From an uncultured Mycoplasmatota bacterium (lineage in GTDB: Bacteria; Bacillota_I; Bacilli_A; RF39; UBA660): DNA of 49,096 nucleotides. A program made the translations under genes and the position numbers. Below are positions 1-29,510 of the stretch, piece after piece. Within the stretch, counting starts at the first letter, position 1; each line of letters begins with the position of its first letter. The stretch is from the NCBI GenBank assembly GCA_946413985.1, contig CAMKMS010000007.1, positions 1 through 49,096 of the forward strand. Direction: 5' to 3'. A model generated the notes under the pieces. The model saw only the letters and a program-made list of their open reading frames with translations, ran no database searches and had not been told where the DNA came from.

Positions 1-733
1 CGTGTTTTAAAAATTTTCCCCAAGCATAAGCAAGTGATGTTTTACCTGTACCAGAGATACCTTGTAAGATTACAAGTTTTGTACTTGCAAGTGCTGAAAT
101 AAATAATCTCATCATTTCAGTTGTATAGTATAGTCTTAATTGACTAGCTGCAAAGTTTCTAAATAATTCAACCAATTCTGGTAAAGTAAATGAGTTATTG
201 TAATTTTGAATTTTATAATCTTGATATCTAACATCAACATCATGTAATTTAGCAAATCTAATTGCTGTATTAGTATCAATTTCTTCTTCTCCTTCAGTCT
301 TATTGCCGCCTTCTTCACCCCCACCTTCAATTGTTGCACTTTCATCTGGCTTAAGACCAAGCTGACTTACTTTCATAGCAAGTATATCTTCTTTTTCTTT
401 TAAAAGTGTTGCCACTTTATGATTAAGTTCACTTATTTCATCAAGTAAACTTTCTTGTTCTACTATTGTTCTTCTAAATCTAATATATTTTTTAATAATA
501 AATGCTACAAATAATACAATAAGTCCAATTAGTATTAATAATACTAGCATAGATACTCCAAATAGTATCCATTCACTTACATTAAAATCACCTTTATAGT
601 TTTTTGCTATTTCTATATATTTTTTGAAGTTAAATATCTGTGTTACTCCAGTAACTAAACCACTAAATATAGAAATAAAACCTCCAAAGAATTGATTTAA
701 TATTTCATAAAAATATTTCAAGAATGTGCTCAT
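1..733 (-). CDS. Membrane-anchored AAA+ ATPase, McrB/MoxR-like (partial)
   Basis: The reading frame is open through the left edge, so the C-terminus is missing; 244 residues are visible. An AGGTGAG ribosome site precedes the ATG, 8 bases after the stop of the upstream gene. An N-terminal region that may lie along the membrane is followed by one clear transmembrane segment (about residues 55-80), a coiled coil (about 85-120) and an acidic Gly/Glu linker (about 125-150). The start of the ATPase domain follows, with a Walker A motif GISGTGKT at residues 225-232. The motif style fits McrB-like or dynein-type AAA+ proteins. Walker B and the arginine finger lie outside the window. It is the last visible gene of the SipW-type operon, so it may power remodelling or quality control of exported substrates; that role is inference. 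Confidence 0.75.
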   Translation of the reverse strand, partial: MSTFLKYFYEILNQFFGGFISIFSGLVTGVTQIFNFKKYIEIAKNYKGDFNVSEWILFGVSMLVLLILIGLIVLFVAFIIKKYIRFRRTIVEQESLLDEISELNHKVATLLKEKEDILAMKVSQLGLKPDESATIEGGGEEGGNKTEGEEEIDTNTAIRFAKLHDVDVRYQDYKIQNYNNSFTLPELVELFRNFAASQLRLYYTTEMMRLFISALASTKLVILQGISGTGKTSLAYAWGKFLKH

Positions 734-741
734 AACTCACC

Positions 742-1719
742 TCACATTGTTACTACATTTGTTTTTATTGCATCGGTATTATTAATAATTGTATCATAAT
801 ATGGTGCATTTTTACTAACAAAAATATTAGAAAATAAGAATAAATTATCAAAATCTGTAACGTAAGTTTCATCTAGTTCAAGTGAGATACTATATCCTTC
901 ATTAATAATTTCATGTACTGTTCTTTTAAACTCAGTATATTCTTTATATTTTATTCTTAAACTAATTCTATCTTTTAATAATTCGTCATCTAATAATTTA
1001 GTAAATCTAATTATTTTCTTTGGCTTTCTAAATAATGATCCAGGAAAATCTACTACATAATAATTATCAAACTTAAGTGCTAAAACTTCAGATAATATTT
1101 TAGAAGATAACATTACTAAAGCTAAATAAATTCTATTTTCAAATACAACATCTGAATCATATGCTTTCTCAATAGCGCTTTTACTATATAATTCTGACAT
1201 ATTACATTTTTGACCTAAATCAATAAAGTATAAATTATCACTAGCTTTCTTACCCTTTAAGAAAAACTCACTAGAATTAAATAATGCAAAAAAATCTACT
1301 TTTTTCTTTATATAATTTTTAATTAAATCACTTATATCTGATTTTGTTTCATCTGTATATTCTAAAGAAATGTTGTCATCTTTAAACATAGTTTTTAATA
1401 ATGAATTTATATCTTTAAATTTAGTAATTCCATCTATATATAATACATAACTAAACAAAGCAAATATATTCTTTATAGTTTCAGCTCTTTTTGGATAATT
1501 TTTAAGTTGATTTTTAAACACTTCTTTCAACTCTTTATCTATTCTTTTTGTAAAATTTGTCTCTTTAATTTCACTTTTATTATAGTATCTAACATCAACA
1601 TACTTAGTAACAAATGGTTCAACCAATGCCTTTTCATACTTATTATCAAGCATTTTTCTATAATAACTCATCAAAAAATCATTGACAAATTTTATATAAT
1701 CACTAAAAACACAATCCAT
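742..1719 (-). CDS. Uncharacterised 325-residue protein of the SipW operon
   Basis: The family is not recognised. The start is supported by an AGGAGG ribosome site. The protein is rich in Lys, Asp, Phe and Tyr, mostly helical in the first half, with beta-like stretches near the end. There is no convincing signal peptide or transmembrane helix, so it is probably cytoplasmic. It lies 12 bases downstream of an exported SipW-type protein and 8 bases upstream of a membrane-anchored AAA+ ATPase, so it is almost certainly co-transcribed with both. Its position directly before the ATPase makes an adaptor or partner role plausible, but nothing in the sequence shows this. Confidence 0.8.
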   Translation of the reverse strand: MDCVFSDYIKFVNDFLMSYYRKMLDNKYEKALVEPFVTKYVDVRYYNKSEIKETNFTKRIDKELKEVFKNQLKNYPKRAETIKNIFALFSYVLYIDGITKFKDINSLLKTMFKDDNISLEYTDETKSDISDLIKNYIKKKVDFFALFNSSEFFLKGKKASDNLYFIDLGQKCNMSELYSKSAIEKAYDSDVVFENRIYLALVMLSSKILSEVLALKFDNYYVVDFPGSLFRKPKKIIRFTKLLDDELLKDRISLRIKYKEYTEFKRTVHEIINEGYSISLELDETYVTDFDNLFLFSNIFVSKNAPYYDTIINNTDAIKTNVVTM

Positions 1720-1731
1720 TCTTTTTTCCTC

Positions 1732-2640
1732 CTATGAAGCAGTGAATGTAACAACCGATGTATTGTTCACAATTGGGTATGTATAATTGTTACTACTATT
1801 TCTTTTATAAAATCTTATTTCTTCACTATATAATGCATCTACTCCAAATGTAATACTATTTATATAATTAACACCATTATATGAACTAGTTGTATATGTT
1901 GAGCCATTTAATATTTCACTTGTAGTATCTAAAATTACAACACTTGGATCAAAAGAAAGCGTTACTGTTACTGAAGTACAGTTGGCTTTTTCAGCTGGCG
2001 TAAGTGCTAAATATTGATTACTTGTAAGTGGATCACCCACATTATAATCTCCAAATGCTGTAACTACTTTATATGTATCAAGTGCATTTGTTATAGTAAA
2101 CATAAAATATGGAGATGAGGTTTTATCAGTTATTTCATAAGTAATACCTCTTTTACCAACAGTAACTGTAAATGTTGCACTAAGTGTTTTAACATATGGT
2201 GCACTTGATGTTGCTGTTACTGTAGCTGTAAAACTCTCATTATCATCAAATGCTCTTAAAGGAACGATAGTAAGTGTTAAATTATCAGTCATTTCTGTTT
2301 TATAAATAACACCACTATTTGCACTTAAATTACAAGTAACACTTGAATCACAATTAGTACTTAGAGTATATGATATATCAGTATCACTAGTTAAAATATT
2401 ATTTTTATGGTTATTTAATTGAAATTGAATATCAATATTTCCAACACCACCCCAGTTATTAATACCATAACTAGTTCCACCTTCTACGAGTTTATCACTA
2501 TTAAAGAAGAAATTATTGGCTTCTAATATATAATTTTTAACCGATCTAATAACGTATCTACTGAATGTTATTCCAATAGGAGACACTAAAATCAACACTA
2601 AAACAGCTACAATAATTATAGATAATTTCCTCTTATTCAT
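1732..2640 (-). CDS. Exported SipW-type surface protein (302 aa)
   Basis: The short basic N-terminus, a hydrophobic stretch (about residues 6-25) and a following FSRY motif resemble the leader of SipW-dependent (TasA/camelysin-type) proteins. A possible processing site is near residues 42-43 (LEA/NNFFF). The mature part is rich in Thr, Ser, Asn, Val and Tyr with alternating beta-strand patterns, as expected of an extracellular beta-sandwich; there are few cysteines and no LPXTG anchor. It belongs to the operon containing the SipW-like peptidase at 3275-4153, its likely processing enzyme. The TasA-like label rests on leader architecture and context only, since the mature sequence is not clearly recognisable. 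Confidence 0.7.
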   Translation of the reverse strand: MNKRKLSIIIVAVLVLILVSPIGITFSRYVIRSVKNYILEANNFFFNSDKLVEGGTSYGINNWGGVGNIDIQFQLNNHKNNILTSDTDISYTLSTNCDSSVTCNLSANSGVIYKTEMTDNLTLTIVPLRAFDDNESFTATVTATSSAPYVKTLSATFTVTVGKRGITYEITDKTSSPYFMFTITNALDTYKVVTAFGDYNVGDPLTSNQYLALTPAEKANCTSVTVTLSFDPSVVILDTTSEILNGSTYTTSSYNGVNYINSITFGVDALYSEEIRFYKRNSSNNYTYPIVNNTSVVTFTAS

Positions 2641-2682
2641 GCCTATTCTCCAATCATAAAAATTATAGCATAATAAAAAAGA

Positions 2683-3282
2683 TTATGCAACTTGCGTAGC
2701 ATCAATTATTATTGAAAATAACTCAATAACTCCTTGATACAAGTCTGGATAATCTTTATAACTTGGTGGAAAAACAACTTTTAATACATACTCATCTAAT
2801 TCATTCTGACTATGTCCAAAACTATAAGTATTTGAATTACTAAATACATTATAATAAACCCCATTAGTATCTTGTCTTACAGTTGATGTTTGTATGATGT
2901 TTGTATAACTGCCACTAAAATCTTCATTTCTGACTATTTCATATGAAAGTGGCAAATTAGTTGTTGTTTCAAACTTTATTGTGTATGTTAAATCAACATT
3001 AGTTCTATGATTATTATCATCATAATTAGCCACATAAAACCTATAATATAGAGGCTGCGTACTTGGTATTAATCCTGTAAGAGATATAGAACTCTCATAT
3101 GTACCCTGATTAACCACAAAAAATGCCGTAGCTGCTTCAGCGGACAAATCAACTCTTGATTCATATCTTGTATATGTTTCACCAGCTAGATTAAAAATTA
3201 AAACTATAGATACAAAGATAAAAATTAATTTACCAAAGAATATGAATCTCTTCTTATCAATTTTTTCAAAGATTTTATTCAT
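2683..3282 (-). CDS. Small exported SipW-type (TasA-like) protein
   Basis: The start was placed at the ATG at 3282 because a GAGG ribosome site sits just upstream; an ATG four codons earlier falls before that site. The product is 199 residues. A basic N-terminus and a single hydrophobic helix (about residues 15-33) lead into TRYESR and then SAEAATAFFV, which resembles the Ala-x-Ala/aromatic site cut by SipW enzymes. The mature part is a compact beta-rich domain of about 150 residues, close to TasA/camelysin length. It overlaps the end of the SipW-like peptidase gene by 8 bases, which implies translational coupling and supports an enzyme-substrate relation. Function as a fibre subunit is inferred. 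Confidence 0.72.
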   Translation of the reverse strand: MNKIFEKIDKKRFIFFGKLIFIFVSIVLIFNLAGETYTRYESRVDLSAEAATAFFVVNQGTYESSISLTGLIPSTQPLYYRFYVANYDDNNHRTNVDLTYTIKFETTTNLPLSYEIVRNEDFSGSYTNIIQTSTVRQDTNGVYYNVFSNSNTYSFGHSQNELDEYVLKVVFPPSYKDYPDLYQGVIELFSIIIDATQVA

Positions 3283-4153
3283 CTTTATCCTCATTCATCT
3301 TTTCATTTATTCTTTTTTGTAATTCACTTAAATCCAACCTTACAGTATAACCAAATGGATCATCATCACTTTCATCTATTTGATTATCTTCATTTACCAA
3401 TTCTGATTTTTTATACAATTCGACTATCTTCTTATCATCTAATTTGTTATCAATAGGTTTATTTTTATTCTTCTTTTCCTCTTTAATTCTTTGTTTTTCT
3501 TCTTCTTTTTTCCTTCTTTTTTCTTTTATCTTTTTCTTTTCTTCTTCAATCTTATCTATTCTTTTTTGTATTTTTTCATCAAGTTTTTTCTTCAAACCAA
3601 CCTTTTCTTTTTTAGGTTTTTCTTCTTTTATTACTTCTACTTCTTTTATTTTTTCTTTAATTTCTTTATTATTATTTCCTCTATATGAAAATGCAAAATC
3701 AAATAACATTAATGTTACAAAAATCATAATAATAATTGTAGGAGATGTAAATATTTGTTGCCATACTCCTCCTTGCTTAATTACTTTTACTACTCTTCCT
3801 ATAACATCTTCTTGTTTAATAGAAACATCTTTAGCGTTGTTAGCATCTCCCTTTGTTATTAAGCTATTTCCACTTTTGGAAATAACTCTGTGAGTTACAT
3901 ATGCATTATCGCTTCTAAATGTAACTATATCATTTAATTCATAACTTTTTTCTTCTTTAACAATTATAATATCATTTTGACTAATTGCGGGTTCCATACT
4001 TCCAGTTGCAACATTAAAAATAGAGTATCCGAATACATCGAAATATTCTTTGCCACTAACCATCATTTTAACCCTTGAAAATATAATTAATACAAGTATT
4101 AAGAATACCAAGAATGTTAAAATATCAACAATAATTCCAAATATTTTCTTCAT
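3275..4153 (-). CDS. sipW: SipW-like (ER-type) signal peptidase I
   Basis: This membrane serine protease removes leaders from exported proteins. A transmembrane helix (about residues 5-27) is followed by the catalytic serine in GSMEP (Ser52), an aspartate in KGD (Asp103) and a histidine in THRV (His88) where bacterial type I enzymes carry lysine. This Ser/His pattern defines the SipW or ER-type family. A second transmembrane helix lies near residues 130-150. Unusually, the enzyme carries a long Lys/Glu-rich, highly charged tail (about 165-245) and an acidic C-terminus, giving 292 residues against about 190 for Bacillus SipW. The tail is probably cytoplasmic and could bind partners. Exported small proteins lie on both sides in the same operon and are the likely substrates. 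Confidence 0.88.
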   Translation of the reverse strand: MKKIFGIIVDILTFLVFLILVLIIFSRVKMMVSGKEYFDVFGYSIFNVATGSMEPAISQNDIIIVKEEKSYELNDIVTFRSDNAYVTHRVISKSGNSLITKGDANNAKDVSIKQEDVIGRVVKVIKQGGVWQQIFTSPTIIIMIFVTLMLFDFAFSYRGNNNKEIKEKIKEVEVIKEEKPKKEKVGLKKKLDEKIQKRIDKIEEEKKKIKEKRRKKEEEKQRIKEEKKNKNKPIDNKLDDKKIVELYKKSELVNEDNQIDESDDDPFGYTVRLDLSELQKRINEKMNEDKDE

Positions 4154-4189
4154 TATTCTGACACCCTTCTATTCTTTTTTCTTTTTCCT

Positions 4190-4810
4190 TTACTCCCCTG
4201 TATATGCAGTAATCTGCTCTCCTAAATATTGAATAGCATGAAATCCAATTGGAACTTTCAAACTATTTCCATAAACAGTTCCAATTTCTGTATCATCTGC
4301 ATTATGAGCTGCTACATCATCCCAATAAACATATATTCTTAAGGATAATGTTTCATCATCTTCTATTTGATCTAAACTTATTACTCCAGTATAATCGTGT
4401 TCTGCTGTCCTAGTTATTCCTATTGTATCTAGTCCATCAATAGCAAATCTTATATTATCTTCATATTCTGTATCACTTAAATCAAGTGTTAGAGTATATT
4501 TTACTGCAACATCACAATCTGTCGCATCAATAATTAAATCAAAATATGCGCTTCCCCCAGGAGCAATATATCCACTTTCTACATGACTATTTTGTGTATA
4601 AACAAAACTATCTATTACAATAGTATCACTTGTACCAGTTGTAATATCTTTATTACTTACTTTTATTATCCACCTACCTAAATCATTTTCAACATTAGCT
4701 TCAGTATCTGTTTCAAACAAAGCAAGAGTATCATAAACTAGTGTTACAGATACTGCAAATAGAATAAATACTAATAAATATAAAACTACTCTAATTCTAC
4801 TCTTCTTCAT
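4190..4810 (-). CDS. Exported TasA/camelysin-like protein
   Basis: The ATG at 4810 was chosen over an in-frame GTG one codon upstream; the ribosome site is weak, and the gene overlaps the preceding one by 14 bases, so coupling is likely. The product is 206 residues. The leader has basic residues, a hydrophobic helix (about 7-27) and the sequence YDTLALFETDTEA, typical of SipW-type substrates in which processing occurs just before an aromatic residue. The mature domain begins with NDLGRWIIKVS and contains GGSAYFDLII and a late YVYWDD stretch, matching the beta-rich layout of TasA/camelysin-like proteins. It sits between the pseudo-peptidase and the intact peptidase. Confidence 0.75.
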   Translation of the reverse strand: MKKSRIRVVLYLLVFILFAVSVTLVYDTLALFETDTEANVENDLGRWIIKVSNKDITTGTSDTIVIDSFVYTQNSHVESGYIAPGGSAYFDLIIDATDCDVAVKYTLTLDLSDTEYEDNIRFAIDGLDTIGITRTAEHDYTGVISLDQIEDDETLSLRIYVYWDDVAAHNADDTEIGTVYGNSLKVPIGFHAIQYLGEQITAYTGE

Positions 4811-5330
4811 CACTATTTTTTCTTGCTTCTTCTATTATAGAATAAACTTCATATACAATAGCAAATATAGTTGGGAAAATAACTAAAAACATAAATCCCC
4901 AACGTGATTCAAATATTGATAGTACAAGTCCAAAGCCATGATAAACAACAGCTCCATTAGCTTTTCCTATCATCTTACTATGTGAAACAACATCCTTACC
5001 AAAATAATATGAATCTTCTGCATGGTCTTCTTCAGTAATATTAGTTATTTCTCCATAATTGATAAATACTTTATCTTGAGGGTTATCTAAATAAAAGAAA
5101 GCTTTTTCTCCTACTTCATAATTTCCTTCAGTCACTTTCTTAATTATGACTAAATCATTTTCTTTAAAATCGGGTTCTAATCTATCATTATCAATAATGA
5201 AAATTGAGTGGTTACCTATTTCACTAACCATAAAATCATTATATGATATTAAACATATAGTTGAAACTACGGCTAATAAAACCCAAACGGATATTAATAA
5301 ACCTTTTATAAAACTTAAAATCTTTTTCAT
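4797..5330 (-). CDS. Signal peptidase I-like pseudoenzyme
   Basis: This 177-residue protein has the layout of an ER/SipW-type signal peptidase: an N-terminal transmembrane helix (about 7-30), a short beta-rich outer domain and a C-terminal transmembrane helix (about 143-165). The stretch HSIFIIDNDRLEP aligns with YSIFNVATGSMEP of the intact enzyme three genes away, and NDLVIIKK aligns with NDIIIVKE. The catalytic Ser is replaced by Arg50, the histidine region reads FINYG instead of VTHRV, and the KGD aspartate motif reads FGKD. All expected catalytic positions are therefore altered, so it is probably inactive. As first gene of the operon, with its own near-consensus promoter, it may act as substrate receptor or chaperone; that is inference. 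Confidence 0.72.
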   Translation of the reverse strand: MKKILSFIKGLLISVWVLLAVVSTICLISYNDFMVSEIGNHSIFIIDNDRLEPDFKENDLVIIKKVTEGNYEVGEKAFFYLDNPQDKVFINYGEITNITEEDHAEDSYYFGKDVVSHSKMIGKANGAVVYHGFGLVLSIFESRWGFMFLVIFPTIFAIVYEVYSIIEEARKNSDEEE

Positions 5331-5356
5331 ATGTACCTCACTTTATCTTCATAATC

Positions 5357-5385
5357 ATTATAATATTTTATAATTTAATAGTCAA
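5357..5385 (-). promoter_or_regulatory. Sigma-A-type promoter of the SipW operon
   Basis: Reading the minus strand, TTGACT (5380-5385) and TATAAT (5357-5362) are separated by exactly 17 bases. It lies directly after the stop codon of the 498-residue gene and about 27 bases before the start of the pseudo-peptidase, so the operon down to base 1 can be transcribed separately from the giant-gene unit. Confidence 0.75.
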
Positions 5386-5386
5386 A

Positions 5387-6883
5387 TTATTTCATTGTAT
5401 CTTTAGCATCTAAAAGATATTGAATTTCTTCTAAATCTACACTATTTCTTTCAATATCAAACTTAATAATTAACTTTTCTACATCATTAATTAATTTATC
5501 TATTTCTTCTAATTCCAATGATTCAATATTAATATTAATATTATTAAATTTATATTTTTCACAAATAATTTTATTCATTTCTTTTTCATCATTTATATTA
5601 ATATTATTTAAAATATCTGAATTAATATCATAGATATATTTTTGTAACTCTAGTAATTTATTATCTATTTCTTTTACAGAAATATCTTCATTTTCTTTCT
5701 TTAATAACTCTACAAAATAGTCATAATTATAGCTTGCTAACTTTAACATATCGAAACAACTTGTTTCATTATCTACATATTTATATATAGAATCTTTTAT
5801 CTTTAATGAATCTAATTCTTCATAATCTTTAATTAATTCTGATATTATATTATTTCTTTCTAATTTAGTATCAGCTAATTTTTCTTTACTTAATTTGAAG
5901 AATCCAGTTTTATGTATTTTCTTATTCAAACCTATAACTGTATTTTCTTTTTTTGAAATATCTTTTAATTTATTATTAAATAAATCCTTATATTCACTCT
6001 TTTTCTCATATAAAGCTTTAATATCTTTAGTAATAAACTCATATTTTTTATACTCTTTATATTCATATAAAGTATCTTGTAATTTTAATAGATTCTCATA
6101 GTTTCTTTCACTATTTGGATCCATTAGTATTTTAGATAATTCTTCCATTTTACTAGCATTTAAGAATTCTCTAACATCATATTTTTCTTCATAGAATAAA
6201 TTAAATAAATAACTAATACTATTATGTTTTATTCTTTCATTATTATCGATAATACTTCTATGTTCATTAATTATTTTATGGTAATCAAATCCCCTATATT
6301 TATTATCAAAATTCTTTTCAATTAGTTTTTGATTATTATAAGCTATATACTTAATATTAATACCTATTTGTTTAATAATATCAGGTGTTTTAAAATATAA
6401 CTCATTAAAAACATCTTGAATATTTTTTCCTTTATCAAAGAATGAACAAATATATTTATTAACACTTTCACTAATATTAAAATCATCCTTTGTTAAAGTT
6501 ACTCCTACACTCTTAAAATTACTAAATAAAGATTCTAATTTTTCATTAATGTATTTTAAATCTCCTTCAGAGTATTCTATATCATAGAATATCCTTTCAA
6601 TATCAAGTCTCTCTGTAAGAGCTACTCTTTTATCAGATAATTTTAATGAATCATAATCTAGTGTAGTATCATTTATATGATAATTATCTCTAGTATACTT
6701 TTTTGTTATTCTATCTATTCTAGAATTAATTTCATTAGTACATTCTAATAATAACTCATTATATTTATATATAGTATCATCTAAATATTCTAAATATTTT
6801 TCTTTATTCTTCTTAGTTTTTGTAGGAAGGATCTTAATATTAGAATTTATATTTTCAATATCGGCTTTAATTTCATCTATCAT
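5387..6883 (-). CDS. Long coiled-coil cytoplasmic protein (498 aa)
   Basis: The family is not recognised. The protein is very rich in Lys, Glu, Asp, Ile, Asn and Tyr, with heptad-like helices across most of its length and no signal peptide or membrane segment. It resembles scaffold or bacterial SMC-hinge-free coiled-coil proteins only in composition. The start is well supported: an AAGGAGG ribosome site lies inside the end of an overlapping 32-residue ORF whose stop shares four bases (ATGA) with this ATG, so the two are translationally coupled. It is the last gene of the unit beginning with the 3008-residue surface protein. A role as cytoplasmic partner of that protein's export is possible but unproven. 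Confidence 0.82.
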   Translation of the reverse strand: MIDEIKADIENINSNIKILPTKTKKNKEKYLEYLDDTIYKYNELLLECTNEINSRIDRITKKYTRDNYHINDTTLDYDSLKLSDKRVALTERLDIERIFYDIEYSEGDLKYINEKLESLFSNFKSVGVTLTKDDFNISESVNKYICSFFDKGKNIQDVFNELYFKTPDIIKQIGINIKYIAYNNQKLIEKNFDNKYRGFDYHKIINEHRSIIDNNERIKHNSISYLFNLFYEEKYDVREFLNASKMEELSKILMDPNSERNYENLLKLQDTLYEYKEYKKYEFITKDIKALYEKKSEYKDLFNNKLKDISKKENTVIGLNKKIHKTGFFKLSKEKLADTKLERNNIISELIKDYEELDSLKIKDSIYKYVDNETSCFDMLKLASYNYDYFVELLKKENEDISVKEIDNKLLELQKYIYDINSDILNNININDEKEMNKIICEKYKFNNININIESLELEEIDKLINDVEKLIIKFDIERNSVDLEEIQYLLDAKDTMK

Positions 6884-6978: not shown

Positions 6979-6990
6979 ATTAACTCCTTC

Positions 6991-9900: not shown

Positions 9901-12900
9901 ATTGTTTGAAATTTCATTACCAGTAGTTGCGGCATTTCCTCCACCAAATACTGAGCATGTACTTAAAATTGTACAACTACTTGTTCCTACAGTTGTTGTT
10001 CCACTTACTGTAATTGATGTATTTCCTTGTACTGTAGCAGTTGAACCATTTCCTCCTGCATAGGCACTTCCACCAATTGTAGCGTTATGGATAAGTACAT
10101 TTGTGTTGCCTCCAACTTCTCCTTCATTTCCTCCACCATATAGGTTATGAGGAATGCTTCCTCCAAGAAGAGTTAGTGATGTATTTCCAGTAACATTAGC
10201 GGCATTTCCTCCACCATATACATTAGTAAGGCTACCACCATTTACAAGAACTTCTGTACTACCTGTATTAGCTTCGTTTCCTCCACCATACAAATTAGTT
10301 ATTGTTGATCCATTTACTGTAACATGAGTAGCAGATGTTGTACCACCTTCATTATTACCACCATAAAGGTTAGTTATTGTTCCAGCATTAACTTCTATAG
10401 TTGCAGTAGTTACATCACCAGCTTGGTTAGATCCACCATATACACTTCCAACAATAATACCACTTCCTCCAGAAGTACCAATTGTTATATCTGTTGTTGT
10501 AGCTCCTGCTTGATTTCCTCCACCAAATACACTTGTAACAGACCCACCTGTAACACTAATTTGCGTTGTAACAGTATCAGCTTCGTTTCCTCCACCAAAT
10601 ATAGTTCCAATTGTTCCATTACTTACTGTGATACTTGTATCGGTAGTCTCTCCACCTTCATTGTTACCACCATATATTGTTCCAATATTACCATTAGTTA
10701 TTGTAATACTTGATGAATCAACATCTCCTGTTTGATTTGATCCACCATATAATGTTGTAACACTAGCATTTACATTTGTTGAAGTGATTGTTGTTGTAGT
10801 AGCACCAGCTTTGTTTCCTCCACCAAATGCAGTAGTAACGCTTCCACCATTAAATGTAACATTAGTATTACCCGTTTCAGCTTCGTTTCCTCCACCAAAT
10901 AATGTTGTAGCACTACCACCATTAACAGTAACATTACTTGTAGTTGTTGTACCACCTTCGTTATTACCACCATATAAAGTACCAACAGTTCCATTAGTTA
11001 ATGTAACATTACTTGTAGTAACATCTCCTGACTGGTCAGATCCACCAAATACTTTTGTTGCACTAGCATTATTTCCATTTATTAATACATTTGTTGTTGT
11101 AGCTCCGGCTTCATTACCTCCACCATATATAGCAGGTATTGTATTAGCTGTTTCAGTTATTTCTATACTTGTTGTTGTTGAATCAACTAAGTTACCTCCA
11201 CCAAACATAGCAGTTGTAACACTTCCACCACTCATAGTAATTTCAGTGTTCGTACAAGTTCCACCTTCATTATTACCACCATAAACAGTTCCTATGCTAC
11301 CACCAGTTATATCAATATGTGTATCTATTACATCACCTAATTGATTTGAACCACCAAACATAGTAGTAATAGTTCCACCACTTACATTAACATTAGTTTC
11401 GTCTATAGATGTTTTGTTTCCTCCTCCATAAACATTAACTATTGTTCCAGCTGTAATATTTACTTCATCATCACCAATAGGTTTTCCTGATTGATCAAAT
11501 CCACCATATACACTATTAATTGTTCCACCATTAACATTTACTGTAATATCACCATTAATATTTGGTGTATAAGTAGTACTACCTTTAGCTCCACCAAATA
11601 CAGAACCAATAACATTTCCATTATTAACTGTTACTGTTACTGTATTAGTATTATGTGTATTATTTCTTCCTGTTTCATTAACAGTACCATAGGCACTTCC
11701 ACCATAAACATTTCCGCTTATTGTAGGCCCAGCAGTACTATTGCCTATTTCTATATTTACATTACCGCTAACAAATGTACCATAATTTGTGTTAGAAGAA
11801 TAACCTCCTTCTCCACCACCATATACATCTGTTCCAACAGTACCACCATATATTTTTACGTTAGTATTTCCGTATTCTCTTCCTTTATTTCTAGAGCCTC
11901 CGTAAACACTTCCATTAACAGTACCATCTTCCATTGTAATATTTATATTATTATTAACATCATAATAAACTATACGTTTTGTACAAGTATAACTACCCCA
12001 GTTTCCTGTACATGTATATCCTCTATTACGATATGATTGAACATCATTACTACTAACAGTTACACTTATGTTACTACCATTATGTGAATAGTTTCCACCA
12101 CCATTATTATTAGCAGCTCCATAAACACTTCCATTGATAGTTCCACCTTTTATTTTTATAGTTGACACACAAGTACCTGCAGATTCATTGTTGTATCCAG
12201 TAGCTCCATAATTTCCACCACCATATACATTTTTATTAATTATTGCATCTGCATCAATTATTACAGTTGAATTTGTAACAGAACCAACACCAACTGAACT
12301 AGAATTTCCATTTCCTGCTCCAAACACACTTCCAGCTTCAACTATTGATATAGTTTCAGTATTAGTATCAGAAATCAATGATGGATCACCTATTACAGCA
12401 TTACCGCCTATATATACATAAGTTTCTCCATAAAGTGTTCCAAGGTAACTACCAGTATCACTACCAGTAACACCATTAGATCCACCAAATACTGCCCAAT
12501 TAACTTTTCCATCAGTAATACTAATTATTCTATTACCATATGTTTCTGATGCTCCGGCTCCACCTACTACAACATCTACAATTCCACCTTTAACATAAAT
12601 ATAATCAGAATTGTATTCTTTATTATCGTAAATTGTAAGTGGTCCTCCAATTAAATTATATACATAACCACCTTCAAGTATTGATTCTCTTGCAGCATAT
12701 TGTTTACCTGAATTTAGTCCTCCAGTATAAACTCCAGTAGCATAACTATATTTGCTATATCCAAGTTGTCCACTCTTAATTATTGTATGAAGCATAATAT
12801 CCGTAGTACCGCTACCATAAATATATCCACTCCAAGATCCAGCACCTGTATGTTTTACTGATAGTTTTGCTCTATTTGCTGCACTTGTTAGTGTATTTGC

Positions 12901-15900
12901 AACATTTGACTTATCTCCTTCACTAACTCTATCATAATCGCAACCATATATACCAGTTCCATCAATATAAGCACTATTTGTATTATATTGATCTTTTCCA
13001 GTAGATATACCAATTACATCATAATTTCCCGTTTCAATAATTACTCTATACTTTTTAATATTACCTGTTCCACCAACTGAAGTATTTGCCCCACCAACTG
13101 CAAAACTAAAGGTAAATCTGTTAGTTGCTGTTGGGTTAACATTTTGTCCTATCTTAAGATTATGAAAATTACCAAATATTCCACCATATTGTATAGCAGT
13201 ATTAGTACCTCTTGAATACCACGAATCAGATTCATAATTGTTTGCAACATTTGAATAAGTTCTTATATTTTCAATTCTTAAATCTTCATAAACTGTTAAA
13301 TTGTTAGAACCAAATCTCAAATAATATCTTGTATAGTTATTTGTTGATCCACTAATTGCTGTTAATGTAAATGGTTTATTATTAACATTAGCACTTGTCC
13401 AAAGAGTACCATTTGTATTAGTTGCTCCCATAAGTAAAATATTTGTATCTCTAGTAGTAAAGTAATAATAAATTGTTCCCTCAACTACAACTTCAGGATC
13501 ACTATTCGAATCATAATATTGAATTAATTCATAATAATTACTACATCCACCACTTGAATTACAACTTCCACTAGTTAGTATTTTTCCAGTATTATCATAA
13601 TATCCAACTAAACTAGCATCGTATGGAATAGTTACTTTTCTATAATATCCTGCTATTGAAGAACCAACTGGTATTTCAGAAGTATAAATCATAATATTTG
13701 GAACACCAGTTGCATCCATATAATAAACATTATTTACATCATCATATAATAAACTATAATATGTTATTTGAGCATTATAATTATTAGTTGATGGATGTAT
13801 ATAATATGGGCAATTGCTACAAGCTCCAGTTAAAGTATTACCAGATGCATCTACTGCCCCAGTTGGATAACTATTTCTAGTAGTTTCTAAAGTATAATAA
13901 TTTCTTACATCATCTCTTTCATAACTAACACTACTAATAGGATGATATGTTTTACTTTCTAAATTTCCAATTGCATTTCCCCAGTTTCCAGTAAATGTTG
14001 CTTGTTTTCCATTTCCCCATTCTGCATAAACATCTATTTCAACGTTATTAGCACTATCTCCTGTATATGTAACAGGTACTTTTATATATCTAACATAATC
14101 TGTTAAATCTAAACTAATCTCAGCATCAGGATAATCACTAATCCATCCATAAAATGTTTTTCCAGTTGGTCTTGATGCAAATGGATTATCAATTAATTCA
14201 AATTTAATATAATCATCATTTTTATTACTACTAGTACCATTATCATTAACTGGATATACTTTATAATAAGTCATTTTATTTTCAGTTTTATCTACTGTTA
14301 AATATCCAGTATTATTTCCTTCTTTATCTGTACCAAAATAATTAATTTGTGTATAAACTAAATTATCAGAAGTATAAATATTTTTATTTTCTGTTGTTGG
14401 TGTTTTTCCATTAGTATTATAAGTATAATTTAATCCTTCATAGTAATTCATATCACTACTATAATCATTAACATATACTGTTGTACCATTAATTCCACTA
14501 TCATGACTTGATGGTGCTGTCTTATTAATACTTCTTGCTAACTTTTTACCACCATTACTACCAGCATTTTGAATTCTAAATTTATTATTAGCCATTACCC
14601 AGTTCAAACTAGATTTTTTATTAAATAATTCAATAACTGATTTAACTGGATAATTATTATAAAAACTTAATTTTCCATTTTCAATTTTATATCTAAAAAT
14701 AGTAGTATTAACAGCTTTATAGCCTTTAATTAGTATTAATTTATCAATATTATACATAACGTTTTCAATCTTAGCATTATTATAATTGTTAATTAATATA
14801 GCAGTAGTACTAACATTACTTTCTCCTGTAATATTGATATTTTCAAATTTATTATTTTCAATATCATTTAACACAAATAATGATGAAGTTAATGATTTTT
14901 TATCACCCTTATATTTAATTTGAATATTATTAATACTAATATTTGATATTTTACTTTGTTTAACATTTTTAAATAAACTCACATTAACATTTTCTAATTT
15001 TATAGTAATAGTTTTATCATCAGTTTTTTCTTCATCTGTATTAGTTTCTTCATCTACTGTTTCTTCTTTAGTTTCTTCTTCACTTACTACAACATCTTTA
15101 GGTTCATCTGCTTGTGTTTTATCTGTTTCTTTTTGATCATCTTCTGTTTTTGAAGAATCATCAGTTTTTTCTTCAACCTCAGTTTTTGATTCATCTTCAT
15201 TTAATTCTTCATTGATAAGTAAAACATCATATTTCTTTTTAGAAATCATACCCTCAACATTAGGAGTACTTTCTTCTTCAGTCTTCTTTTCTTCTTGAGT
15301 ATTATTATCTTCTTTCTTTTCTTCTTCTACACTATTACTTTCTTTAGTCTCTTCCTTAGTTTCTTCTTTTACTTCTTCTTTTGTTTCTTTTTTATCATCT
15401 TCTGTTTCCTTAGTTTCTTCTTTTATTTCTTTTTCTTCTTCAACATCTTCATCTGTTTCAGCAGTATTGTCTTCTTCAATTGCTTTTTTGATAATTAATT
15501 TACTTTTATCAACATTAAAAGTTACATCGCTTATATTTAAATTTTTAAATGTTGCACTATATAATGAATCAAACAGATTAAATGATGCTTCATTTTCTTC
15601 TTCATTTACATAAAATTCATCTAAAGTAAAATTGAATATTGTATAACCATTTCCATTAAATGACCCACTAAAAGTTTTATCTAATTTAGAGAAAGAAAAA
15701 TCTCTTCCATCCATATTTATATTATTTTTTAATTCATAATATTTATTAAAATATTCACCATTTTCATCTGAATTTATAAGAGTAAAAAAATAAGCAAGTT
15801 CACTACCATTTTTTATAATGTATGGTTTACTTGATGAACCATCTCCTGAACTAAACTTTTTAGCTATCTTTCCATCCCATATTGTAGAAGTGGTTTTTTC

Positions 15901-16017
15901 ACTAAAAGTAGTAAAAATTGCAAACAAATTTGCAGCAAAAAATAATAGTAATATACTTACTAGAAGTCTTCTATTTTTAAGTTTAGTTTTTGCTTTATAA
16001 AATAACGTCTTAAGCAT
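6991..16017 (-). CDS. Giant repetitive surface beta-helix protein (3008 aa)
   Basis: It occupies about 18% of the window. A basic N-terminus and hydrophobic helix (about residues 17-37) give an export signal or membrane anchor; there is no LPXTG motif at the C-terminus. Residues 45-180 and 336-450 look like one beta-helix domain (GNGYTI, FKNLNISDV, FENINI rungs) split by a Lys/Glu/Thr/Asp-rich stretch at about 180-335. A Tyr/Asn/Thr-rich adhesin-like part follows. Residues about 1170-2060 hold dozens of rungs of 23-28 residues ending in VYGG, LYGG or VFGG, with a four-rung higher-order repeat. The last 900 residues contain beta-sandwich-like domains. A promoter and GGAGAAG ribosome site precede the start. 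A surface adhesin or coat role is inferred; the exact export route is unknown. Confidence 0.85.
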   Translation of the reverse strand: MLKTLFYKAKTKLKNRRLLVSILLLFFAANLFAIFTTFSEKTTSTIWDGKIAKKFSSGDGSSSKPYIIKNGSELAYFFTLINSDENGEYFNKYYELKNNINMDGRDFSFSKLDKTFSGSFNGNGYTIFNFTLDEFYVNEEENEASFNLFDSLYSATFKNLNISDVTFNVDKSKLIIKKAIEEDNTAETDEDVEEEKEIKEETKETEDDKKETKEEVKEETKEETKESNSVEEEKKEDNNTQEEKKTEEESTPNVEGMISKKKYDVLLINEELNEDESKTEVEEKTDDSSKTEDDQKETDKTQADEPKDVVVSEEETKEETVDEETNTDEEKTDDKTITIKLENVNVSLFKNVKQSKISNISINNIQIKYKGDKKSLTSSLFVLNDIENNKFENINITGESNVSTTAILINNYNNAKIENVMYNIDKLILIKGYKAVNTTIFRYKIENGKLSFYNNYPVKSVIELFNKKSSLNWVMANNKFRIQNAGSNGGKKLARSINKTAPSSHDSGINGTTVYVNDYSSDMNYYEGLNYTYNTNGKTPTTENKNIYTSDNLVYTQINYFGTDKEGNNTGYLTVDKTENKMTYYKVYPVNDNGTSSNKNDDYIKFELIDNPFASRPTGKTFYGWISDYPDAEISLDLTDYVRYIKVPVTYTGDSANNVEIDVYAEWGNGKQATFTGNWGNAIGNLESKTYHPISSVSYERDDVRNYYTLETTRNSYPTGAVDASGNTLTGACSNCPYYIHPSTNNYNAQITYYSLLYDDVNNVYYMDATGVPNIMIYTSEIPVGSSIAGYYRKVTIPYDASLVGYYDNTGKILTSGSCNSSGGCSNYYELIQYYDSNSDPEVVVEGTIYYYFTTRDTNILLMGATNTNGTLWTSANVNNKPFTLTAISGSTNNYTRYYLRFGSNNLTVYEDLRIENIRTYSNVANNYESDSWYSRGTNTAIQYGGIFGNFHNLKIGQNVNPTATNRFTFSFAVGGANTSVGGTGNIKKYRVIIETGNYDVIGISTGKDQYNTNSAYIDGTGIYGCDYDRVSEGDKSNVANTLTSAANRAKLSVKHTGAGSWSGYIYGSGTTDIMLHTIIKSGQLGYSKYSYATGVYTGGLNSGKQYAARESILEGGYVYNLIGGPLTIYDNKEYNSDYIYVKGGIVDVVVGGAGASETYGNRIISITDGKVNWAVFGGSNGVTGSDTGSYLGTLYGETYVYIGGNAVIGDPSLISDTNTETISIVEAGSVFGAGNGNSSSVGVGSVTNSTVIIDADAIINKNVYGGGNYGATGYNNESAGTCVSTIKIKGGTINGSVYGAANNNGGGNYSHNGSNISVTVSSNDVQSYRNRGYTCTGNWGSYTCTKRIVYYDVNNNINITMEDGTVNGSVYGGSRNKGREYGNTNVKIYGGTVGTDVYGGGEGGYSSNTNYGTFVSGNVNIEIGNSTAGPTISGNVYGGSAYGTVNETGRNNTHNTNTVTVTVNNGNVIGSVFGGAKGSTTYTPNINGDITVNVNGGTINSVYGGFDQSGKPIGDDEVNITAGTIVNVYGGGNKTSIDETNVNVSGGTITTMFGGSNQLGDVIDTHIDITGGSIGTVYGGNNEGGTCTNTEITMSGGSVTTAMFGGGNLVDSTTTSIEITETANTIPAIYGGGNEAGATTTNVLINGNNASATKVFGGSDQSGDVTTSNVTLTNGTVGTLYGGNNEGGTTTTSNVTVNGGSATTLFGGGNEAETGNTNVTFNGGSVTTAFGGGNKAGATTTTITSTNVNASVTTLYGGSNQTGDVDSSSITITNGNIGTIYGGNNEGGETTDTSITVSNGTIGTIFGGGNEADTVTTQISVTGGSVTSVFGGGNQAGATTTDITIGTSGGSGIIVGSVYGGSNQAGDVTTATIEVNAGTITNLYGGNNEGGTTSATHVTVNGSTITNLYGGGNEANTGSTEVLVNGGSLTNVYGGGNAANVTGNTSLTLLGGSIPHNLYGGGNEGEVGGNTNVLIHNATIGGSAYAGGNGSTATVQGNTSITVSGTTTVGTSSCTILSTCSVFGGGNAATTGNEISNNSTATVSISGATVYGNVYGGANTSKVFGQTYVNIGDDVTLGTNIQKGTVLIKGTVFGGGEANASGSDDYDWTFVSVTDGTSVNINGNGYANFDINGSIFGSGNASTTSGSSEIVIKNYGTFDSPKDNISIQRCDEVTINNSSLILRGATDRENEYDTELFTISRVPVLNLVNNSTLYLESGANLLEEFNSLDSSGNKASVTIDKDNGTVTKTVDNRVYLLADKSLKVLNIAHDQNVTDYGEVNGMSFFGMYKYKANGDVNVGIYDDYDYGVILDWAGVFDNVTAYVLGLHESNHNIEVDGFYTNYIDQGTSKNMMDYIEPTPTSGPLYMWVIGEGVIEYEVDLVASKYSTLGTFELTLRDFTRPNTSFEILGFDYSQLETGVELVDKSQIDKIASTQTIADNRMGLAFETSNTGWLTNGHTQFLSDDNLDVPWTGTTTYESGNSGVVPSLLLYLYHSKNLYTEGDMGTVRVQMMSITQVSPLVKETKRLNIIINISRTLFDTLSYEGSMTPGRKYEMFTSTSTNITSKSALSAYYSLFNAGDNIYRTGYHRTLVSDYVLPLNTKITMIDFSDSTPKYYYHVINSTDVTNKTQEFNNTGEASYDLSMFEVMGAIGSGVYYDDAAMNTAYTHTSPDYNEEEFVFIVDFADTNIASNQLNNKLLMELRDVNNETIYSVLSPQHKNLTYSIYANQDAIIELTGTLSSNKIYTGDTVLADLTFTYTQQLVGSTLIYDTHYFDSKLGVKISLINSDNEVVTGTTLLGLYYELGESRYDPNIEGTTRIKVADKVASTQKWININTGTSTIASGHYKLRFESFGSPDGIYYGLNSSDTLDFNIEIVNEIYGLDVDADPKEMIVNTETNKNEKGTNTITYNFEYNSGLTNPNIKFKMYRRNYASVNDTSYSVVDAADYFSGLTASARANEYVVENNLSNEFNHTFTYKNNLMSGTYKLEFILYDGNSKIGTVDKYIIIK
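10140..11360 (-). repeat. Four-rung higher-order coding repeat of the giant protein
   Basis: Within the YGG rungs, four types recur in fixed order: GGSNQxGDV, GGNNEGG, GGGNEA and GGGNKAGAT or a close variant. The SNQ/SDQ rung occurs near 11356, 11045, 10745 and 10437, so the block repeats about every 300-311 bases. The frame is kept throughout, as expected for a coding tandem repeat expanded by unequal recombination. Confidence 0.75.
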
Positions 16018-16048
16018 ACTACTACCTACTTCTCCATTCTATGATAAA

Positions 16049-16077
16049 ATTATACCATAAACCCCAAAAGTAAACAA
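16049..16077 (-). promoter_or_regulatory. Promoter of the giant surface protein gene
   Basis: On the minus strand a perfect TATAAT (16049-16054) is preceded at 17 bases by TTGTTT (16072-16077). The start codon of the 3008-residue gene is about 32 bases downstream with a GGAGAAG ribosome site between. The preceding unit has its own terminator just upstream, so this is an independent transcription start. Confidence 0.65.
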
Positions 16078-16088
16078 CATTTTACGTC

Positions 16089-16117
16089 AAAAAAAAAGCA
16101 TTTTTTAATGCTTTTTT
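16089..16117 (-). terminator. Rho-independent terminator after the 357-aa TasA-like gene
   Basis: On the minus strand, AAAAAGCATT pairs with AATGCTTTTT and runs into a tract of nine T residues. It separates the two-gene TasA-like unit from the giant gene. Confidence 0.8.
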
Positions 16118-16122
16118 AATTA

Positions 16123-17196
16123 CTATACATCATCATCTAGTGTGAATCCTATTTTATATGAAATGAATGCTCCAGATGCTGCGTTTTCACAGTCAATATC
16201 TTGTCCTTCAACCCACATATAAACTCTAATTTTAGTAATTCCACTTCTTAATGTAAATACTTGTAATAAGTGAGCAGATTGTGTATTTGAAGCATCATAT
16301 GCAACATAACCAGCTCCGCCATCACTATAAGCTACATTTGTTCTCATTAAATTAGTAATAGGACCGAACTTACTTGTATCATATGTATTCCATGCGTTTG
16401 TTCTATTTAATACAATTGGAGTTGCAATAGCAGCTTTAACTCCTACATATGGAACATAAGTCGCTCCACTTGAAAGTTCTTGTACATCGTTTTTATCATA
16501 ATATGTTAATGCATTATTAACACCATTAATAGTGTGTGCATCATAGTTTGGTTCAACAATAATTGAAGATGTGCCAGTTGCTAAAGCTTGTGCACTTGTA
16601 TGAGATGCAGTACTAGCTACATTTCCTTCAATAACAAATCCATATCTAGCAGCATATTGTAAACCTTTATCAGCTTCACCTTCTGTTACTTTTACACCAG
16701 ATCCATTTGTTAGATAAATTGGTACATTATTATCTTCTGTTTTTAGGAATATATCAAATGCAACAAAGTGTCCTACTGTGTTATCTCCACTTTCATGTAC
16801 CTCTGCATGTGTTGCAGATGTAGTTAATGACATAGCTCCGCCATTATCATCATCACCTTCAACAGCTCCATCAAAGAACACAATTTTTCCATTACTTACA
16901 GTTCCTACAGTTGATACTGGTGCAAGTACATTTGGTACTTGGTTAACTGCATTTGTATAATCTGTTACATTAATAATATCATCATTAGTTATTAATGTTT
17001 TCCAGTCCTTTGCATTTGTTGAAATTTGCAAACCACTTGATGCTGCTACACTAATATCGATTGCTTCAATTGAAACAGTTCTATTAGCTGTAAACCATGC
17101 ATAAGTTGATGTTGATAACAATACTATTGTTAAAAATAGTAATAGTACCAATGATTTTAATTTCTTATTTTTTCTTTCTTTCTTATTATTTGTCAA
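16123..17196 (-). CDS. TasA/camelysin-like SipW-dependent surface protein (357 aa)
   Basis: The leader is the clearest SipW-type signal in the window: Lys-rich start, hydrophobic core (about residues 15-33), then STSTYAWFTANRTVS with probable processing after YA. The mature protein is Thr/Ser/Ala/Val rich and beta-patterned, starting with the usual ISVAASSGLQIS strand. Near the C-terminus VYMWVEGQDIDCENA is followed by a final strand, a motif shared with the 249-residue neighbour. It is predicted to be exported and cut by the SipW-like enzyme encoded 12 kb downstream, then displayed as a fibre or coat subunit; the polymer role is inferred from TasA family knowledge. It lies 5 bases after the upstream gene, in one operon, and is followed by a strong terminator. 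Confidence 0.85.
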   Translation of the reverse strand: MTNNKKERKNKKLKSLVLLLFLTIVLLSTSTYAWFTANRTVSIEAIDISVAASSGLQISTNAKDWKTLITNDDIINVTDYTNAVNQVPNVLAPVSTVGTVSNGKIVFFDGAVEGDDDNGGAMSLTTSATHAEVHESGDNTVGHFVAFDIFLKTEDNNVPIYLTNGSGVKVTEGEADKGLQYAARYGFVIEGNVASTASHTSAQALATGTSSIIVEPNYDAHTINGVNNALTYYDKNDVQELSSGATYVPYVGVKAAIATPIVLNRTNAWNTYDTSKFGPITNLMRTNVAYSDGGAGYVAYDASNTQSAHLLQVFTLRSGITKIRVYMWVEGQDIDCENAASGAFISYKIGFTLDDDV

Positions 17197-17201
17197 CTAA
17201 A

Positions 17202-17924
17202 TCACTCCAATTCTTTCATAGTTTCTTCTGTATGTTCTTCAGTTAGCGTCATGTGTAATCTTGCATGCCCGCCAATAAGAGCATTCGTACATTCCGGATC
17301 GTCTCCTTCAATCCAAATGACAACCGTTATTTTATCTCGATCGCCTGATTGCATATCTCTTCTAGGTTCTAATATTATTGTTCCATCTTCATCATCTCTA
17401 AATTTAGTAGTACCAGGCTCAGCTTCACCATCAATACTATTTCCTTTAGCATAAACTGTTTTGTCATTGTTCATATAAATCATAATTCTAAGTGCTTCAT
17501 CAGCATTTAGTATTACATCATCCATTACTATCTTATACCAGTAATTAATCACAGCTGAACTAGTATTTTCCATATAGAATGAATATGCAATATAATTCTT
17601 TCCATTATGTGAACCTTCATATTCAGTAATATCATCAGGAAGCCATTTAATAGATATATTATCTAAAAATTGGACATCATCTGCTTTAAGTTTTCTTTTC
17701 GGTGTAGGATCATTTAATGTCTCATACATCGCAAGTCCACTATACAGCATTTTATTATCCTGAAGCGAAACAATAAAACTTCCATCATTGAATAGAACTT
17801 TAAGTACAATATAGATAATTATTAGTAAAAGCAATAATAAGAAAATAGCAAGTTTAACAAATTTACCTAATTTTTTCCATCCTCTTACCCTATCAGCTTT
17901 AACTACTACATCTTTATTACCCAT
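17202..17924 (-). CDS. Membrane-exported TasA-like partner protein (240 aa)
   Basis: The start was set at the ATG at 17924 because a GGAGGA ribosome site lies 6 bases upstream; a longer frame from 17951 starts before that site. The N-terminus is basic (residues 1-24), followed by a long hydrophobic helix of Leu/Ile (about 25-47). The rest is a beta-rich outer domain with IAYSFYMENTSS and, near the end, VVIWIEGDDPECTNA, the same motif as in the following 357-residue gene. No cleavage site of SipW type is obvious, so it may stay membrane-anchored and act as base or assembly partner for the TasA-like protein; that is inference. It is the first gene of a two-gene operon with its own promoter. Confidence 0.78.
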   Translation of the reverse strand: MGNKDVVVKADRVRGWKKLGKFVKLAIFLLLLLLIIIYIVLKVLFNDGSFIVSLQDNKMLYSGLAMYETLNDPTPKRKLKADDVQFLDNISIKWLPDDITEYEGSHNGKNYIAYSFYMENTSSAVINYWYKIVMDDVILNADEALRIMIYMNNDKTVYAKGNSIDGEAEPGTTKFRDDEDGTIILEPRRDMQSGDRDKITVVIWIEGDDPECTNALIGGHARLHMTLTEEHTEETMKELE

Positions 17925-17988
17925 AACACTTCCTCCAATGACTAGTAGCAAACATACAAAAGGAACTTATCCTATAATGTATATTACA

Positions 17989-19376: not shown

Positions 19377-19379
19377 TTT

Positions 19380-24126: not shown

Positions 24127-24159
24127 ATGATATAATATTTATATAATAGGAGTTTGGCT

Positions 24160-29482: not shown

Positions 29483-29510
29483 AAAACAAACCTTTCCTTT
29501 CTGGAAAATA

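What the first reader, a model, noticed from the sequence alone, without database searches (positions are those of the whole stretch)
1..17924. Three co-oriented units form a candidate surface-fibre system with dedicated SipW export
Seen: about 18 kb on one strand encode two TasA-like exported proteins, a 3008-residue beta-helix protein, a coiled-coil protein, a SipW-like peptidase, an inactive paralogue of it, three further SipW-type candidates, an unknown protein and a membrane AAA+ ATPase, under three promoters. Known: SipW processes TasA-like fibre proteins in Bacillus. Inferred: these genes jointly build a surface fibre or coat; the giant protein, pseudo-peptidase and ATPase are not part of the classical tapA-sipW-tasA set.
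Basis: partly seen in the sequence, partly recalled or inferred. Interest (0 to 1): 0.75.

Follow-up and report, generated by a model that had tools for sequence, protein, structure and literature searches.

The report
McrB-linked SipW surface-fibre gene cluster
Uncultured gut and rumen Bacilli and Clostridia share a conserved block of about 12 to 15 genes that couples dedicated signal peptidases and probable fibre proteins to a membrane-anchored relative of the McrB restriction GTPase, which suggests that a defence-type motor has been recruited to run a surface fibre.

Summary
In 117 genomes of the family, the membrane ATPase and the TasA-like protein occur together far beyond chance: 28 have both, 6 have one, 83 have neither. 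In 80 loci from GTDB genomes the order SipW/pseudo-SipW - small exported proteins - unknown protein - ATPase - DUF2357 protein - second SipW - TasA-like pair - giant recurs, while flanking genes are not shared (median 1 of 79 loci). The window ends inside the ATPase gene; relatives show what follows.

New facts. The ATPase is an NxD-type McrB-like GTPase with a membrane anchor; its neighbour is a nuclease-less McrC-type DUF2357 protein. The 'unknown' protein has a degenerate EAL fold and is fused to SipW in seven genomes. The pseudo-peptidase has lost its catalytic residues throughout. Six families of exported proteins carry SipW-type cleavage sites. The closest solved folds for the TasA-like protein are donor-strand fibres, led by TasA, at modest Z.

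Closest published entity: 'CoCoPALM', named in one passage of the CoCoNuT paper and not described further. Fibre formation and the role of the GTPase remain inferred.

The parts
17202..17951 (-). TasA2: N-terminal membrane-anchored exported protein whose C-terminal motif (WxEGxDxxCxN) is shared with TasA1; TTG start as called, true start uncertain
   Evidence: ORF; directly before TasA1 in 42 loci; no SipW-type site in 48 of 57 members
16123..17196 (-). TasA1: probable main fibre subunit with SipW-type signal (TYA|WFTAN)
   Evidence: motif match in 75 of 75 members, 68 of them YAWF; AF2 pLDDT 86; best solved fold the TasA fibre 8aur, Z 5.5, rmsd 4.7, 153 aligned; Foldseek alone not significant
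6991..16017 (-). Giant 3008-aa surface protein: N-terminal membrane segment, acidic linker, about 22 repeats of ~25 aa (probable beta-solenoid, residues 1437-1959), conserved C-terminal YIIIK end
   Evidence: homologues of 1900-3100 aa in the same context in relatives
5387..6883 (-). CC498: coiled-coil-type protein without signal or membrane segment
   Evidence: found in 22 of 80 loci within about 10 kb of the ATPase
4797..5330 (-). pSip: catalytically dead SipW paralogue (Ser and His lost)
   Evidence: weak TIGR02228 match E 6.8e-5; His absent in at least 77 of 80 homologues
4190..4813 (-). X207: small exported protein with SipW-type site (TLA|LFET)
3275..4153 (-). SipW: active ER/archaeal-type signal peptidase (Ser52-His88, Asp103, Asp109), charged cytoplasmic tail
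   Evidence: TIGR02228 E 2.6e-21, NF046067 E 3.5e-18; Ser in 58/58 and His in 57/58 homologues
2683..3294 (-). TapA-like small exported protein (TYTRY site)
   Evidence: TIGR04087 TapA only 13.5 bits, cut-off 80; related to X207 by profile comparison
1732..2640 (-). TM302: exported protein with FSRY-type site
   Evidence: 75 of 80 loci
742..1719 (-). UNK325: helical N-terminal part plus degenerate EAL-fold domain (residues 148-325), no signal peptide
   Evidence: AF2 pLDDT 94; Foldseek 5m3c E 6.8e-4, prob 1.0; VIA-align Z 13.8, rmsd 3.2, 172 aligned to EAL domain 4rni; fused to SipW in relatives
2..733 (-). Membrane-anchored, coiled-coil McrB-like (NxD) GTPase, N-terminal 244 aa only; gene runs off the contig
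   Evidence: full-length orthologues carry Walker A GxSGTGKT, Walker B LDEMN and TINNDD in 80/80

Best explanation
The window holds most of a conserved cluster for making a protein fibre or coat on the surface of uncultured, small-genome Bacilli. The small exported proteins (TasA1, X207, TapA-like, TM302 and, in relatives, Y210 and X207div) are inserted through Sec. Their signals are cut by a dedicated Ser-His signal peptidase (SipW and, in relatives, SipW2) at an A|x-aromatic site. [quoted passage not shown] TasA2 stays in the membrane as base, and the giant repeat protein is the tip, stalk or coat component. The dead peptidase pSip is a structural partner of SipW that holds or presents substrates. 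On the inner face, a membrane-anchored McrB-like GTPase ring, a nuclease-less DUF2357 (McrC N-domain) activator and the EAL-fold protein UNK325 form a switch or motor that controls or powers peptidase-coupled assembly. Shown: gene set, order, co-occurrence, active-site state, motif and fold assignments, SipW-UNK325 fusion. Inferred: fibre formation, donor-strand assembly, pSip as scaffold, and the direction of control by the GTPase.
For: Order is conserved in 80 loci: ATPase-DUF2357 adjacent 80/80, DUF2357-SipW2 79, UNK325-ATPase 76, TM302-UNK325 69; non-core neighbours are shared with a median of 1 of 79 other loci against 21-79 for core families. Co-occurrence 28/4/2/83 in 117 genomes. In other families of the class, 18 of 19 loci with the ~500-aa GTPase also hold an S26 peptidase and a TasA1/TasA2 homologue within 10 kb. 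SipW and UNK325 are one polypeptide in seven genomes, directly before the GTPase. SipW and SipW2 keep Ser/His; pSip does not. The YAWF/AKY/ARY-type sites fit the SipW preference for an aromatic residue at P2' reported for TasA (PMC10269814). The TasA1 model's best solved folds are TasA fibre, archaeal 0406 thread, FimA and CanA. GTPase profile matches McrB (6hz4 E 5.8e-4); DUF2357 matches above cut-off. UNK325 is EAL-fold.
Against: No experiment shows a fibre. TasA1 fold matches are weak (best Z 5.5; Foldseek prob at most 0.11 and no E below 0.03), and PF12389/TasA and TapA models do not match above cut-off. In a sister variant the UNK325-GTPase-DUF2357 triad occurs without TasA1 or SipW, next to a membrane-anchored D-rich-repeat exported protein and sometimes a P-type signal peptidase, so the GTPase module is not strictly tied to fibres. 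B. subtilis TasA fibres are not known to need an NTPase (my knowledge), so the GTPase may regulate rather than assemble. Fisher p ignores phylogeny.
Confidence: 0.62

Rival explanations
1. Anti-phage system: the McrB/DUF2357 pair is a Type IV restriction relative that senses infection at the membrane and the exported proteins are its effector or shield.
For: NxD McrB-like GTPases with DUF2357 belong to the CoCoNuT-like branch predicted to be defensive (PMC11090510); the GTPase matches PADLOC candidate PDC-M26A, E 6e-36.
Against: No nuclease domain found in the DUF2357 protein (Pfam scan to E 1); no PADLOC match for any other component tested; 12-15 genes dominated by export functions; held in constant order across families rather than scattered; full-length GTPase not found on plasmids or phages.
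Confidence: 0.13
2. Surface coat or S-layer-like adhesin system rather than a fibre: the giant repeat protein is the main product, and the TasA-like proteins and SipW only display it.
For: Giant of 1900-3100 aa recurs in the same context; unrelated giants of more than 1700 aa also sit beside the GTPase in another family.
Against: The giant is among the least conserved core parts and its SipW-type site is present in only 2 of 11, whereas TasA1 is amplified to 3-7 tandem copies in another lineage, as expected for a filament subunit.
Confidence: 0.2
3. Separate operons that merely lie together; no joint function.
For: No promoter or terminator evidence for one transcript; the three modules change order between genera.
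Against: Modules are shuffled yet stay together across families, flanks are not shared, and SipW-UNK325 fusion joins two of them physically.
Confidence: 0.03

Closest known systems
[quoted passage not shown] 2024, PMC11090510
   Same: NxD McrB-like GTPase fused to a membrane/coiled-coil N-terminal part, DUF2357 McrC-like partner, linked signal peptidases
   Different: That paper names them in one passage and defers description; its main text reports no TasA-like subunits, giant protein, EAL-fold component, pseudo-peptidase or SipW-UNK325 fusion. Supplements could not be read. Membership by tree was not tested here.
tapA-sipW-tasA fibre operon of Bacillus subtilis (donor-strand TasA fibres, PMC9674648)
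   Same: Ser-His signal peptidase beside exported proteins with an aromatic P2' residue; weak fold likeness of TasA1 to the TasA fibre; a TapA-like partner
   Different: Many more subunit families, paired active and dead peptidases, giant protein, McrB/DUF2357/EAL module; TasA and TapA models not matched above cut-off
sipW-bsaABCRSD operon of Clostridium perfringens (PMC7395162)
   Same: SipW-dependent filament operon with several exported proteins
   Different: Uses a two-component system; no GTPase module in that operon; not compared by sequence here
FimX and LapD (degenerate EAL regulators of pili and adhesins)
   Same: EAL fold of UNK325 matches their EAL domains
   Different: UNK325 lacks the EAL motif; proper GGDEF proteins seem absent from several genomes with the cluster

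Membership tests
SipW / S26B signal peptidase (window 3275-4153) | S26B family match above cut-off (TIGR02228) | tested here: met
   76.1 bits, cut-off 51.85; the Bacillus SipW equivalog NF046067 reaches 65.8 of 190, not met
SipW / S26B signal peptidase (window 3275-4153) | Ser-His dyad and acidic residues | tested here: met
   Ser52, His88, Asp103, Asp109; conserved in 57-58 of 58 homologues
SipW / S26B signal peptidase (pSip, window 4797-5330) | Ser-His dyad | tested here: not met
   lost in window and in at least 77 of 80 homologues
TasA/camelysin family | Pfam PF12389 match | tested here: not met
   no match in window proteins; only one sub-threshold hit elsewhere in the genome
TasA/camelysin family | TasA donor-strand fold | tested here: inconclusive
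   8aur first of the aligned chains but Z only 5.5, rmsd 4.7, 153 aligned; Foldseek not significant
TasA/camelysin family | SipW-type cleavage site with aromatic P2' | tested here: met
   TasA1 75/75 match the motif, 68 of them YAWF; TIGR04088 itself only E 0.06, below cut-off
TapA | TIGR04087 above cut-off | tested here: not met
   13.5 bits, cut-off 80
CoCoPALM | NxD GTPase motif followed by D or E | tested here: met
   TINNDD in 80/80, NxDD in 19/19 class-level loci; tested on relatives because the window copy is cut before this motif
CoCoPALM | FtsB-like membrane plus coiled-coil N-terminus | tested here: inconclusive
   membrane segment and helical stretch seen; FtsL models match weakly, E 0.007-0.05
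CoCoPALM | DUF2357 partner | tested here: met
   PF09823 38-45 bits, cut-off 23.3, next gene in 80/80 relatives; beyond the window edge
CoCoPALM | associated signal peptidase | tested here: met
CoCoPALM | coiled coil on the McrC homologue | tested here: inconclusive
   by eye a long C-terminal coiled-coil-like stretch in the class-level homologue read in full, short in this family; no coiled-coil predictor run
CoCoPALM | position in McrB GTPase tree | not tested
   published alignment not at hand
McrBC Type IV restriction | PD-(D/E)xK nuclease on McrC | tested here: not met
   no PF04411 or other nuclease family in the 368-379-aa DUF2357 proteins, Pfam to E 1
McrBC Type IV restriction | McrB-type GTPase domain | tested here: met
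   profile A1 to 6hz4/6ut6/7vsr McrB, E 6e-4 to 1e-3
EAL phosphodiesterase (UNK325) | EAL fold | tested here: met
   Foldseek prob 1.0; VIA Z 13.8, rmsd 3.2, 172 aligned
EAL phosphodiesterase (UNK325) | EAL catalytic motif | tested here: not met
   EAL string in 2 of 85 sequences; no nearly invariant acidic column

The most novel reading that the evidence does not exclude
A new class of surface-fibre biogenesis in Bacillota: a membrane-anchored McrB/McrC-type GTPase machine, coupled through an EAL-fold adaptor to a paired active and dead signal peptidase, drives or gates assembly of donor-strand fibres. A restriction-type motor would here have been turned into a protein-export and assembly device.
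Probability: 0.35. Interest if true: 0.85.

Novelty: new variant of a known kind. Interest (0 to 1): 0.66.

Why it matters
McrB-family GTPases are known as restriction motors. Here one is held at the membrane and tied, by gene order in 80 loci and by gene fusion of its EAL-fold neighbour with SipW, to dedicated signal peptidases and probable fibre subunits. If confirmed, this gives Gram-positive bacteria a nucleotide-driven route to surface fibres, assigns parts to the undescribed CoCoPALM group, and points to a main surface structure of uncultured gut and rumen bacteria. It also shows a consistently conserved pseudo signal peptidase, which suggests that SipW works as a pair.

Tried and rejected
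Promoters and terminators: no excess over shuffled sequence. TIGR04088 on the own genome: one weak hit on TasA1, E 0.06. PF12389 on the own genome: one weak hit elsewhere. PDB sequence search with TasA1 and DUF2357 profiles: nothing meaningful. Pfam and NCBIfam on the giant: nothing. DNA tandem repeats in the giant: only short, low-complexity rows, so the ~25-aa repeat is visible only in protein. Search for the missing DUF2357 gene elsewhere in the own genome: none, uninformative at 77% completeness. Idea that UNK325 answers to c-di-GMP: weakened, since many GGDEF hits are ~670-700-aa proteins of the size of c-di-AMP phosphodiesterase GdpP (my reading, not tested) and two of 16 genomes have none. 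Mobile-element origin: the listed GTPase matches on plasmids cover at most 69% of the query, none of 226 reaches 80%; one phage record with 61%. Profile-profile probabilities among the small exported proteins are uncalibrated, and shared N-terminal membrane segments inflate the short ones; only the long alignments (X207 with TapA-like, Y210, X207div) are leaned on.
Full report
Setting. The window is contig C7 of a 1.19-Mb, 51-contig, 77%-complete genome of low G+C (~25%). Its left edge is the contig end, so the cluster is cut inside its ATPase gene.

The observation. The three-promoter claim has no statistical support. SipW is an S26B enzyme above the TIGR02228 cut-off with Ser52, His88, Asp103 and Asp109. 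The 177-aa paralogue matches the same family weakly and lacks Ser and His.

Relatives, first set. A search of 117 family genomes with the pseudo-peptidase hit 55, with TasA1 30, and with the ATPase profile 32. ATPase and TasA1 coincide in 28, with 4 and 2 alone and 83 without either. The genomes are nearly all from different genera; relatedness was not corrected. Regions fetched from ten of these genomes show the same set in three modules: (A) TM302-UNK325-ATPase-DUF2357-SipW2-Y210, with X207div divergent; (B) TasA2-TasA1-giant-CC498; (C) pSip-X207-SipW-TapA-like, often with a second TasA1. In the window the order is B-C-A; in other genera A-B-C or C-A-B, with one module sometimes on another contig. 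Modules move but mostly stay together.

Relatives, second set. Some are the same records as in the first set, so the sets overlap. ATPase-DUF2357 is adjacent in 80/80, followed by SipW2 in 79 and preceded by UNK325 in 76; the ATPase is present by construction, the others are not. As a control, genes outside the core have homologues in a median of 1 of the other 79 loci, whereas the core families have medians of 21 to 79. The order is therefore not background synteny. Loci L197, L199 and L200 (Eubacteriales/Clostridia) hold the set in a different order.

Class level. At phylum scale 79 of 392 genomes have a match, including many in other families of the class. Of 19 fetched loci with the ~500-aa form, 18 have an S26 peptidase and a TasA1 or TasA2 homologue within 10 kb; the exception is L240. 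There the DUF2357 proteins are mostly 480-860 aa, and the one read in full (L236) ends in a long charged, coiled-coil-like stretch.

What the cytoplasmic parts are. The ATPase profile finds only McrB among solved structures, E 6e-4 to 1e-3. All 80 full-length copies have GxSGTGKT, LDEMN and TINNDD, and 19 class-level copies have NxDD. This is the NxD variant described for the CoCoNuT branch of McrB-like GTPases, where D or E usually follows (PMC11090510). The ATPase is ~70% identical across genera while TasA1 is ~40%. Its neighbour matches DUF2357, the McrC N-terminal domain that stimulates McrB, above cut-off, with no nuclease match. UNK325 folds with pLDDT 94, and residues 148-325 match EAL domains (Foldseek prob 1.0; Z 13.8, rmsd 3.2, 172 aligned); the catalytic EAL motif is absent. 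In seven genomes SipW and UNK325 form one polypeptide directly before the ATPase. That is the strongest single sign that peptidase and GTPase modules act together.

What the exported parts are. TasA1 members carry YAWF or close variants at the end of the signal (75/75), X207div YAKY-type (74/75), TM302 FGRY-type (74/83), X207 YALF-type (56/71), TapA-like 49/74, Y210 44/77; cytoplasmic families serve as controls with 0/102 and 3/85. TasA of B. subtilis has an aromatic residue at P2' and is cut by SipW but poorly by the general peptidase of E. coli (PMC10269814). Long profile alignments link X207, X207div, TapA-like and Y210. The TasA1 model (pLDDT 86) has no significant Foldseek match, but re-alignment of Foldseek's candidates puts the TasA fibre first (8aur, Z 5.5, rmsd 4.7, 153 aligned), then the archaeal 0406 thread (Z 5.2), FimA and CanA. 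These Z values are low, so the fold is suggestive only. TasA fibres grow by donor-strand exchange (PMC9674648).

Pseudo-peptidase. Across 80 pSip sequences the catalytic His is gone in at least 77 and Ser is mostly replaced, while SipW and SipW2 keep both. A dead copy kept across lineages points to a structural role.

Variants. One lineage has 3-7 tandem TasA1 genes and a shorter, 1050-1240-aa 'giant'. Another keeps UNK325-GTPase-DUF2357 without TasA1, followed by a 420-440-aa (in some 556-557-aa) protein; in the three read in full it has one membrane segment and repeats of the form DxDGDGxxDxNID, and a signal peptidase of about 175 aa, P-type by its SxMxxT and K motifs in the one read, lies near it in several loci. 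The triad thus appears to be the movable core, coupled to exported proteins in both cases.

Literature. [quoted passage not shown] No other relevant paper in the held library uses the name, and none found here links SipW, EAL and McrB. The window system is best filed as a probable CoCoPALM with a newly resolved parts list. Formal membership by tree was not tested.

Verdict. A real, widely conserved cluster; surface-fibre assembly is the best reading; the role of the McrB-type GTPase is the open and interesting question.

Noticed in passing
window 29551-29652 (-): Purine riboswitch (RF00167, 81.7 bits) directly upstream of a xanthine/uracil permease gene 27971-29527.
   Followed up: no
window 24154-27937 (+): Three-gene block on the plus strand: 615-aa protein without Pfam match, 144-aa protein and an AAA-family ATPase (PF00004), at the lowest G+C of the window (21-23%).
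   Followed up: no
window 18534-19853 (-): Two neighbouring zinc-ribbon membrane proteins just upstream of the cluster.
   Followed up: no
window 32845-35007 (+): 720-aa protein with NlpC/P60 domain, a weak T4SS-pilin match and a weak CHAP match.
   Followed up: no
L103, L105, L107, L111, L113, L116 (G054, G031, G016, G114, G083, G091): Lineage with 3-7 tandem TasA1-like genes (350-570 aa) and, where seen, a 1050-1240-aa protein in place of the giant.
   Followed up: partly
L118-L120, L252-L257, L259: Variant in which UNK325-GTPase-DUF2357 stands without TasA1, next to a membrane-anchored exported protein; the three read in full carry acidic DxDGDGxxDxNID repeats.
   Followed up: partly
L247 and class-level genomes G590, G627, G517: Tandem ~450-aa McrB-like GTPases, in L247 on either side of a DUF2357 gene, without SipW or TasA homologues nearby: a related but different system.
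   Followed up: no
L234, L235, L239, L240: Giant proteins (more than 1700 aa, some cut by the fetched stretch) beside the GTPase in another family; the three examined share no GG repeats with the window's giant.
   Followed up: no
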